Source: Verrucomicrobia bacterium S94 (GTDB taxonomy: Bacteria > Verrucomicrobiota > Kiritimatiellia > Kiritimatiellales > Pontiellaceae). From it: a stretch of 64,000 nucleotides of DNA. The position numbers and the translations under genes are program-made. Shown piece by piece: positions 17,479 to 59,341 of the stretch. The notes beneath the pieces are model-generated. The model saw only the letters and a list, made by a program, of their open reading frames with translations. It ran no database searches and had not been told where the DNA came from. Where the stretch lies: contig CP036201.1 in the NCBI GenBank assembly GCA_004299845.1, positions 3,224,001 through 3,288,000 of the forward strand, given 5' to 3'. Positions within the stretch are counted from its first letter, which is position 1; each line of letters starts with the position of its first letter.

Positions 17479-17862
17479 ATGAAAGAGCGTAACCTTCAAC
17501 CCGACTGCTGGAAATATGAACTGTCCGGAGGTTTTCAGGCCTGGGCGGGAAAAACCGATCGCGACAACGATCTGCTGAGTCTGAAAACCGCTCGCCCGGA
17601 AGAACTCTGGTTTCATGTTCACGGCGTACCCGGAAGCCACGTCATTCTCCGCCACCCCGCCGGAGAAAAACCCGGCAATGCCCTTATCCGCCAGGCCGCC
17701 GCCATCGCAGCCTGGCACTCCAAAGCCCGCAACGCCGGCAATGTACCCGTAAAATACACCGAAGCCAAACATGTCGGAAAACCCCGCGGCGCCAGACCCG
17801 GCAGCGTCACCGTCAAGCGCGAAAAAACCATCAAAGTCCGCCCCGCCCTTCCCCGCGAATAA
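17479..17862 (+). CDS. Stand-alone NFACT-R (DUF814) RNA-binding domain protein
   Basis: The 127-residue protein is only the NFACT-R domain found at the end of RqcH/NEMF/FbpA proteins. Signature: 'ELWFHVHGVPGSHVILRH' (about 45-62), a helix 'ALIRQAAAIAAWHSKARNAGNVPVKYTEAKHV', then 'KPRGARPGSVTV.REKTIKV'. In RqcH this domain helps contact tRNA and the 50S subunit in ribosome quality control. The N-terminal NFACT-N, HhH and coiled-coil parts are absent, as in other free-standing bacterial copies. The ATG at 17479 is taken because 'MKERNLQPDC' opens the conserved part; the frame is open from 17413. The last codons lie inside a large inverted repeat. Confidence 0.85.
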   Translation: MKERNLQPDCWKYELSGGFQAWAGKTDRDNDLLSLKTARPEELWFHVHGVPGSHVILRHPAGEKPGNALIRQAAAIAAWHSKARNAGNVPVKYTEAKHVGKPRGARPGSVTVKREKTIKVRPALPRE

Positions 17863-17919
17863 AGTATATCATCCGTCTTCCACGATCGTGGGAATTGGAT
17901 GATATACTTTATTCGCGGG
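17852..17919. repeat. 23-bp perfect inverted repeat around the NFACT-R stop codon
   Basis: The 23 bases at 17852-17874 are perfectly inverted at 17897-17919. The 22-base loop contains CCACGATCGTGG, itself a palindrome. No T-run follows, so it is not a standard terminator for either side, though it may still end transcription from both. Confidence 0.8.
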
Positions 17920-28645: not shown

Positions 28646-28801
28646 TAATACCATTTACTAAAACATTCCGGTCTTAATGACAGCGTTATTCCGCGCAGAG
28701 ACGCTGAGAGCGCGAAGCCGTTTATGTCTGAATTTCTCTGCGGCCTCAGCGCCTTTGCGCGGGATCAGATTTATGCCGGATAGTTTTAACGTTTGGTATA
28801 A
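28646..28801. mobile_element. MITE-like foldback repeat, copy 1
   Basis: This 156-bp intergenic unit begins TAATACCA and ends TGGTATAA. The outer 26 bases of each side form an imperfect inverted repeat (TAAAAC and CCGG are shared). The interior also folds: the CCGCGCAGAGACGCTGAGAG arm at about 28687 mirrors the CTCAGCGCCTTTGCGCGGG arm at about 28745. No coding capacity. Copy 2 is at 37458-37613. Confidence 0.7.
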
Positions 28802-37457: not shown

Positions 37458-37613
37458 TTATACCCTTTACTAAAACATTCCGGTCTTAACGACAGCGTTA
37501 TTCCGCGCAGCGACGCAGAGCGCGCGGAGCCGTTTATGACTGAATTTCTCTGCGTCCTCAGCGCCTCTGCGCGGGATCAAATTTATACCGGATAGTTTTA
37601 ACGTTTGGTATTA
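37458..37613. mobile_element. MITE-like foldback repeat, copy 2
   Basis: Same length (156 bp) and mostly the same sequence as 28646-28801, from the TACTAAAACATTCCGG arm to the TTTAACGTTTGGTATTA end. Differences cluster in the inner arms. Insertion lies exactly at the lipoprotein stop codon, so the element may supply its 3' end. No gene within. Confidence 0.7.
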
Positions 37614-54721: not shown

Positions 54722-54830
54722 AAAAAAACAGCGACCGGCAAGGGGGAGCCGGCCACTGTTCTCGAGACTTTGCAGTCTCTCAGGGCGTTGTTGGTATATG
54801 CGTAGACCTGCGGCTTCCGGATCCGTTCAA
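54722..54830 (-). ncRNA. Structured RNA family, copy 1
   Basis: Read from the minus strand, this roughly 109-nt RNA has a GC-rich 5' part, a conserved single-stranded ACCAACAAC, a hairpin GAGAC-TGCAAA-GTCTC (54764-54779) and a 12-bp terminator stem (54728-54759) with loop TCCCCCTT and a T-run. TATAAT lies at 54838-54833 (minus), about 7 bases before the expected 5' end. Copy 2 at 59229 shares the layout with pairing-preserving changes. It has no clear reading frame constraint. Family unknown; it may be a trans-acting small RNA. Confidence 0.7.
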
Positions 54831-58805: not shown

Positions 58806-59135
58806 TCAGGGCAGCTGTACGCGGAAAAAACGCCCGGCGGTCAGATTCGTACTGAACGAGGTTTCGGAACCGTCGGTGGCTGTAACGGTTTGGATGACCG
58901 AAAAATCGTTGGTCAGGTGGTCTGCAGCAAGAATCCGGTACTGCTTCCCGGAAACGGAATTCCAGCTGAGCTCAATTTCGCCGGGATTTTGTGACCCCGG
59001 TCCGTTCATCGACAACCGGAAATACGAGGTCTTTTCGTTCGGGTCGGTTCCGATACGGTATTCCTCGGCATTGATGAATCCGTCGCCATTCGGAACGCTC
59101 CCATGATACTTTTTCAGCCATTGCAGTCTGACCAT
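58806..59135 (-). pseudogene. C-terminal tail of a secreted calcium-repeat protein (remnant)
   Basis: The 109 codons read 'WLKKYHGSVPNGDGFINAEEYRIGTDP', a TSP3-like calcium loop, followed by a beta domain ending '...RFFRVQLP'. This is the same tail type as at 17939-18655. There is no signal peptide and the start is short, so it looks like the end of a lost larger gene. A functional small ORF cannot be excluded. Confidence 0.5.
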
Positions 59136-59228
59136 CGTTCAATTTTTTAAAGAATCAGAAATTACATAAAATATTTTAACATTAAAAATGATCATATTTT
59201 ACATATTACTGTCAGCCGCCCGGACGCA

Positions 59229-59341
59229 AAAAAAACAGCGACCGGTAAGGGGGAAACCGATCGCTGTTCTCGAGGCTTTGCAACCTCTCAGGGAGTTGTT
59301 GTTGGTATTCAGGTAGACCCGCCGCCCGGCGAAGTGTTCAA
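59229..59341 (-). ncRNA. Structured RNA family, copy 2
   Basis: This 113-nt copy aligns along its length with 54722-54830. Minus-strand features: CTGAATACCAACAACAACTC linker, hairpin GAGGT-TGCAAA-GCCTC, and a 12-bp terminator stem (59235-59267) with loop TTCCCCCTT and a T-run of seven. Positions that differ from copy 1 keep pairing (for example A-U to G-C in the small hairpin, C-G to U-A closing the terminator loop). Neighbouring genes differ from copy 1, so it looks like an independent transcript. Confidence 0.7.

What the first reader, a model, noticed from the sequence alone, without database searches (positions are those of the whole stretch)
54722..54830. Covarying structured RNA present in two copies
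Copies at 54722-54830 and 59229-59341 align over about 110 nt. In both, the minus strand folds into a small hairpin and a 12-bp terminator stem. Base changes preserve pairing: GAGAC/GTCTC becomes GAGGT/GCCTC and the terminator's closing pair C-G becomes U-A. Four pairs are G-U only when read from the minus strand (A-C mismatches on plus). Neither the flanking genes nor any known riboswitch I recall explains it.
Basis: partly seen in the sequence, partly recalled or inferred. Interest (0 to 1): 0.8.

Follow-up and report, generated by a model that had tools for sequence, protein, structure and literature searches.

The report
Stress-sigma-controlled small RNA family
The two copies are real members of an undescribed multi-copy family of roughly 70-nt regulatory RNAs in a group of marine anaerobic bacteria; each copy sits behind an envelope-stress type (sigma-E-like) promoter, so they look like the RNA arm of a stress response that probably shuts down outer-membrane protein genes.

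Summary
The conserved 110 nt is a promoter of about 40 nt plus a minus-strand RNA of about 70 nt. The promoter (TTTTGAAC-N16/17-GTCTAA/C) has the sigma-E (ECF) layout. The RNA has a single-stranded 5' end (AACAACUCCCUGA), a covarying hairpin and an intrinsic terminator with a C-rich loop (CUCCCCCUU). I found 39 distinct copies in 14 of 28 genomes of the same genus-level group (Pontiellaceae, Kiritimatiellota), up to seven per genome and often clustered, none full-length outside it, and no Rfam match. Ten of eleven significantly covarying column pairs are the proposed base pairs. A promoter-only search of the window's genome (8 hits) independently exposed two further copies. The same boxes precede the genome's sigma-E-like ECF gene, a zinc peptidase, a nitroreductase and (in relatives) a DksA-like gene. 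Most likely these are trans-acting small RNAs of an ECF sigma regulon, comparable with MicA/RybB and Fusobacterium FoxI/FoxJ. The best target candidate is a DUF481 outer-membrane protein mRNA, with a perfect 13-nt match just after the AUG in Pontiella agarivorans. Feedback on the sigma mRNA is plausible. Expression, sigma dependence and targets are untested.

The parts
54825..54829 (-). copy 1: -35 box TGAAC (preceded by TTTT)
   Evidence: TGAA(C/T) by selection in all 39 listed copies, C in 37 of 39; T-rich upstream
54802..54807 (-). copy 1: -10 box GTCTAC, 17-nt spacer to the -35 box
   Evidence: GTC in 38 of 39 copies, spacer always 16 or 17 nt
54722..54795 (-). copy 1: predicted transcript of about 74 nt including the T-run; start inferred 12 nt after the G of GTC
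   Evidence: promoter geometry and terminator; start site not measured
54780..54792 (-). copy 1: conserved single-stranded seed AACAACGCCCUGA (family consensus AACAACUCCCUGA)
   Evidence: information content by column, unpaired in folds
54764..54779 (-). copy 1: hairpin 1 GAGAC-UGCAAA-GUCUC
   Evidence: folds; six covarying pairs in the family
54729..54758 (-). copy 1: terminator hairpin with loop CUCCCCCUU (54740-54748)
   Evidence: folds; four covarying pairs
54722..54728 (-). copy 1: terminator T-run
   Evidence: sequence
59336..59340 (-). copy 2: -35 box TGAAC
59313..59318 (-). copy 2: -10 box GTCTAC
59228..59306 (-). copy 2: predicted transcript of about 79 nt including the T-run
   Evidence: start inferred
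59288..59300 (-). copy 2: seed AACAACUCCCUGA
59272..59287 (-). copy 2: hairpin 1 GAGGU-UGCAAA-GCCUC
59236..59266 (-). copy 2: terminator hairpin with loop UUUCCCCCUU
59228..59235 (-). copy 2: terminator T-run
   Evidence: sequence

Best explanation
Each copy is an independent transcription unit for a roughly 70-nt trans-acting small RNA, transcribed on the minus strand of the window from a promoter of the sigma-E/ECF type (TTTTGAAC-N16/17-GTCTAA/C) and ended by its own intrinsic terminator. The most likely sigma factor is the genome's sigma-E-like ECF protein (G000:C1:3961730-3962413), whose gene has the same boxes upstream and is followed by a gene for a putative one-helix membrane anti-sigma factor. 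Under envelope stress the released sigma would switch on protein genes (zinc peptidase, nitroreductase, DksA-like, sigma itself) and the small RNAs. The unstructured 5' end AACAACUCCCUGA and the C-rich terminator loop would then pair with translation-initiation regions and block translation, probably of outer-membrane protein mRNAs (best candidate a DUF481 beta-barrel protein) and possibly of the sigma mRNA through its AAGGGGG leader as negative feedback. Shown by sequence: the family, its structure, the promoter motif, and the motif shared with the sigma gene and other genes. Inferred: transcription start, sigma dependence, trans action, targets and feedback.
For: 39 distinct copies with TTTTGAAC-N16/17-GTC boxes and a free spacer. 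A promoter-only pattern found two new RNA copies in the own genome; in 7 genomes 29 hits versus 9 in the reversed-pattern control, 19 of the 29 being copies of this RNA. The boxes match those published for rybB/micA, GGAACTTTT / GTCAAA (PMC1804206). TTGAAC-N17/18-GTCTTGA precedes the sigma-E-like gene in 7 of 7 genomes; of 13 sigma-region-2 loci in the genome only this one has a motif with one mismatch or less in its upstream region. The promoter also precedes a PF04298 zinc peptidase in 3 species, a nitroreductase in 2 and a DksA-like gene in 3. Own terminators, covarying hairpins. Perfect 13-nt seed complement 11 nt downstream of the start-codon A of a DUF481 gene in G027, 12 of 13 in the own genome; energies in the best 0.1% of random ATG contexts. 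Precedent for sigma-E small RNAs with C-stretches in a bacterium without Hfq (PMC11005410).
Against: No expression data. The sigma-gene promoter has a spacer of 17-18 nt and GTCTTG, not GTCTA(A/C), so another ECF factor is not excluded. No Hfq was detected in 28 genomes. Seed-complement sites are little enriched over control in most genomes, the DUF481 match is weak or absent in several genomes that carry the RNA, its codons are constrained by the protein, and copy 1 itself (GCCC) pairs less well, rank 5 of 55. The AAGGGG leader could be an ordinary ribosome-binding site.
Confidence: 0.72

Rival explanations
1. A cis-acting leader (riboswitch or attenuator) of the downstream gene, for example the glycine-transporter-family (PF03458) gene that starts 82 nt after copy 1.
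For: Copies G000a, G027a, G001c and G009b lie 75-93 nt upstream of that gene, which carries PF03458 in the window, and a terminator in a leader is typical of attenuators.
Against: Downstream genes of other copies are unrelated; 6 of 25 copies checked have no same-strand ORF of 80 aa or more starting within 400 nt. Tandem copies each have their own promoter and terminator. The conserved parts are a 5' single-stranded motif and a loop, not a ligand pocket; no Rfam match.
Confidence: 0.1
2. Sigma-dependent small RNAs as described, but driven by a different ECF sigma factor than the sigma-E-like one, and acting on other targets (for example broad pairing to ribosome-binding sites).
For: The genome has about ten other sigma-region-2 proteins; spacer and -10 tail differ between the RNA promoters and the sigma-gene promoter.
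Against: None of the other sigma genes has the motif with fewer than two mismatches upstream; the TTGAAC...GTCTTGA site occurs at the sigma-E-like gene in 7 of 7 genomes.
Confidence: 0.15
3. A repeated palindromic or mobile DNA element (REP/MITE-like) with no RNA function.
For: Multiple copies per genome, clustered, in intergenic regions.
Against: Copies keep a promoter, a seed and strand-specific stability, and they diverge by compensatory changes rather than by recent copying; the locus is syntenic between species.
Confidence: 0.03

Closest known systems
MicA and RybB, sigma-E-dependent small RNAs of Enterobacteriaceae (PMC1804206)
   Same: Size of about 70-80 nt, GAAC/GTC(A/T)AA sigma-E type promoter boxes, likely outer-membrane protein target near the start codon, own terminator.
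   Different: No sequence relationship; those act with Hfq, which is not detected here; single genes instead of up to seven paralogues.
FoxI and FoxJ of Fusobacterium nucleatum (PMC11005410)
   Same: Sigma-E-dependent RNAs with C-stretches (in a hairpin loop in FoxJ) in a bacterium lacking Hfq and ProQ; over-expression lowers rpoE.
   Different: No sequence relationship; two dissimilar RNAs rather than a paralogous family. Their sigma dependence and targets are measured, here inferred.
LhrC1-5 of Listeria (PMC4132741)
   Same: Multi-copy RNA induced by envelope stress, redundant CU-rich motifs including one in the terminator loop, Hfq dispensable for its effect on lapB.
   Different: Controlled by the LisRK two-component system, not an ECF sigma; 111-114 nt; unrelated sequence.
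CcsR1-4 of Rhodobacter (PMC8307010)
   Same: Four homologous RNAs under stress sigma control.
   Different: Processed from one ccaF1 co-transcript with RNase E; here every copy has its own promoter and terminator.

Membership tests
sigma-E (ECF)-dependent small RNA (functional class) | ECF-type promoter boxes directly upstream of the RNA | tested here: met
   TTTTGAAC-N16/17-GTC in 39 copies; promoter-only search finds copies
sigma-E (ECF)-dependent small RNA (functional class) | same promoter at the sigma gene itself (autoregulation) | tested here: met
   boxes shared in 7 of 7 genomes, spacer 1-2 nt longer and GTCTTG instead of GTCTA
sigma-E (ECF)-dependent small RNA (functional class) | expression requires the sigma factor | not testable with these tools
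   needs RNA measurement in a sigma mutant or over-expresser
sigma-E (ECF)-dependent small RNA (functional class) | represses outer-membrane protein mRNAs by pairing near the start codon | tested here: inconclusive
   one strong candidate, DUF481 gene, in G027, G000, G009 and G019; weaker elsewhere
Hfq-dependent small RNA | Hfq encoded in the genome | tested here: not met
   no PF17209 match in 28 genomes, control found in 5 of 14 known genomes; a divergent Hfq is not excluded
Known Rfam family | covariance-model match above gathering score | tested here: not met
LhrC-like multi-copy envelope-stress RNA | several homologous copies with redundant C-rich motifs | tested here: met
   up to 7 copies per genome; ACUCCCUGA seed and C-rich terminator loop; analogy only
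LhrC-like multi-copy envelope-stress RNA | control by a two-component response regulator | not tested
   promoter looks ECF-dependent instead
cis-acting riboswitch or attenuator | conserved downstream gene | tested here: not met
   downstream genes unrelated or missing

The most novel reading that the evidence does not exclude
A complete sigma-E / small-RNA / outer-membrane-protein circuit in a lineage without detectable Hfq, in which up to seven paralogous RNAs per genome, each with its own ECF promoter, use one site (5' seed) against outer-membrane protein mRNAs and a second site (C-rich terminator loop) to feed back on the sigma mRNA.
Probability: 0.35. Interest if true: 0.75.

Novelty: new variant of a known kind. 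Interest (0 to 1): 0.6.

Why it matters
Searches of the held library found no paper naming Kiritimatiellota together with small RNA, or Pontiella together with sigma factor. This family would give the group an envelope-stress circuit readable from sequence, with a named sigma factor, regulon genes and a testable target, present in a cultured type strain (Pontiella agarivorans NLcol2). It would extend the sigma-E plus small RNA principle, known from Proteobacteria and Fusobacteria, to a third distant lineage, again apparently without Hfq, and offer a natural series of paralogues for asking why some bacteria multiply one small RNA.

Tried and rejected
Rfam at gathering score and at E<=10: only chance snoRNA/miRNA scores. 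Riboswitch or attenuator of flanking genes: rejected as a general explanation. REP or mobile element: rejected. Homologues outside the genus-level group: model R1 on 194 relatives and on 388 genomes of the phylum gave only partial, terminator-like or weak matches outside it. The exact 17-mer TACCAACAACTCCCTGA in genome-contig hit three Pontiellaceae strains; the other 24 single matches in unrelated organisms were taken as chance and mostly not examined. Seed-complement search as a global target screen: counts only modestly above the reversed-pattern control except in G000, so only the DUF481 candidate is carried forward, with caution. RNAalifold on the MAFFT alignment recovered only the terminator because hairpin 1 shifts register between subgroups; a structure-anchored alignment was used instead. 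A search for cuckoo RNAs gave one marginal paper.

Full report
What is there. On the minus strand at 54722-54829 and 59228-59340 lie two homologous units. Rfam has no match.

Family. A blastn search of 146 relatives found copies in further genomes of the same genus-level group, often several on one contig within a few kilobases. A covariance model from 16 copies extended this, giving 39 distinct copies with the promoter in 14 of 28 genomes: 4 in the window's genome, 7 in G017, 5 in G001. The model included the promoter columns, so it favours copies that have them. Outside the group only terminator-like or weak partial matches appear, in 194 relatives and in 388 genomes of the phylum. G001, G009 and G017 have contigs of the same length as contigs of Pontiellaceae strains B1224, B12219 and B12227, and G027 has a contig equal to the N50 (1,265,434 bp) reported for Pontiella agarivorans NLcol2 (PMC10880615). 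The window is therefore from a Pontiella-like member of the Kiritimatiellota (inference).

The unit is promoter plus RNA. Aligned copies show TTTTGAAC, then 16 or 17 bases of variable sequence, then GTCTAA or GTCTAC (GTC in 38 of 39), then the conserved AACAACTCCCTGA. Two conserved boxes at a fixed distance with a free spacer is the signature of a promoter, and the boxes match the sigma-E layout published for rybB and micA (GGAACTTTT / GTCAAA; PMC1804206). As a test, the pattern TGAACN16-17GTCTA alone was run on the whole genome: 8 hits (5 in the control), of which two are the window copies and two are a tandem pair of further copies at G000:C1:2506763-2507013, not known before. In seven genomes a stricter pattern gave 29 hits against 9 control hits; 19 of the 29 are copies of this RNA.

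The RNA. From a predicted start 12-13 nt after the G of GTC, the transcript is about 70 nt (longer in some copies): unpaired 5' end with AACAACUCCCUGA, hairpin 1, a short linker, and a terminator of about 10-12 bp whose loop is C-rich (CUCCCCCUU, or UCCUCUUUU in some copies). Hairpin 1 has quite different sequences in different copies yet stays paired. A tree-based null (300 simulations, 29 distinct sequences) leaves 11 significant column pairs, 10 of them proposed pairs in hairpin 1 and terminator. Limit: the alignment was anchored on predicted folds, so the percentage of paired cells is partly built in.

Which sigma. Thirteen loci of the genome match sigma region 2. Only the sigma-E-like one (G000:C1:3961730) has a near-match to the motif in its own upstream region. 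TTGAAC-N17/18-GTCTTGA lies there in all seven genomes tested, with four other hits and two control hits, and a similar site is seen in most of the 25 genomes that have the gene. The next gene encodes a small protein without Pfam match that looks like a one-helix membrane anti-sigma factor (topology judged by eye). Other genes with the promoter: a PF04298 zinc metallopeptidase in three species, a nitroreductase in two and a DksA-like protein in three (the last two named by eye from the sequence). This reads as an envelope or general stress regulon, which is inference.

Targets. The seed complement TCAGGGAGTTGTT was sought with up to one mismatch in seven genomes. In G027 the only exact hit outside the family begins 11 nt after the A of the AUG of a signal-peptide DUF481 protein; the orthologue in the window's genome matches 12 of 13. 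Pairing energies lie in the best 0.1% of random ATG contexts and among the top two of 55 gene contexts for the copies with the full consensus seed; copy 1 itself, with GCCC instead of UCCC, ranks 5 of 55. Conservation across the group is mixed: strong also in G009 and G019, weaker in G001, G017, G005, G024 and G025, and the codons are constrained by the protein, so this is a candidate and not a proof. The leader of the sigma gene has AAGGGG(G) in about 12 of 13 resolvable genomes that carry the RNA and in 2-3 of about 10 that do not; it would pair with the loop CCCCCUU (part of this count was read by eye). Shared ancestry and ordinary ribosome binding could explain this too.

Rivals. A cis-acting leader is disfavoured by unrelated or missing downstream genes and by tandem copies each with promoter and terminator. 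Another ECF sigma is possible but less parsimonious. No Hfq was found in 28 genomes; Fusobacterium shows that sigma-E small RNAs can work without it (PMC11005410).

Comparison. In working principle it is closest to MicA/RybB and FoxI/FoxJ; in build (multi-copy, redundant C-rich motifs including the terminator loop) closest to LhrC1-5 (PMC4132741). CcsR1-4 share number and stress sigma control but are processed from one transcript (PMC8307010). No sequence relationship to any of them is claimed. I file it as a new family of a known functional class, with sigma dependence and target repression still to be tested.

Noticed in passing
L149, L151, L153, L154, L157, L159 and L133 (about 2760-2890 of that locus): A second RNA-like family, found once in each of seven genomes: conserved GTTTGGGTTTCACTTGAGC followed by a terminator with a CCTCCTCTTTTCC loop, but without the ECF boxes; no Rfam match in the six of these loci that were scanned.
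   Followed up: partly
L105 about 1455-1545 (leader of the sigma-E-like gene) and orthologous loci L106-L127: In many genomes the sigma-gene leader has AAGGGGG followed by a short covarying-looking hairpin with an NNNTAA loop and then the start codon, which may bring a distant ribosome-binding site close to the AUG.
   Followed up: no
window 17079, 22330, 27825, 37129, 46167, 59372: Repeated short palindromes TTCCA-N5-TGGAA, one of them between copy 2 and the divergent IMPDH/GMP-reductase-type gene; similar ones lie upstream of some RNA copies in relatives. They look like an operator or a repeat.
   Followed up: no
window 28648-28799 and 37460-37611: A 152-nt direct repeat, 93% identical, 8.8 kb apart.
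   Followed up: no
window 17852-17919: A 34-bp inverted repeat, 88% complementary, with no bases between the arms.
   Followed up: no
window 58806-59135: A 109-aa ORF downstream of copy 2 that looks like a remnant of a longer protein; the best-matching ORF in G027 (L020:9225-10247) is about three times as long.
   Followed up: no
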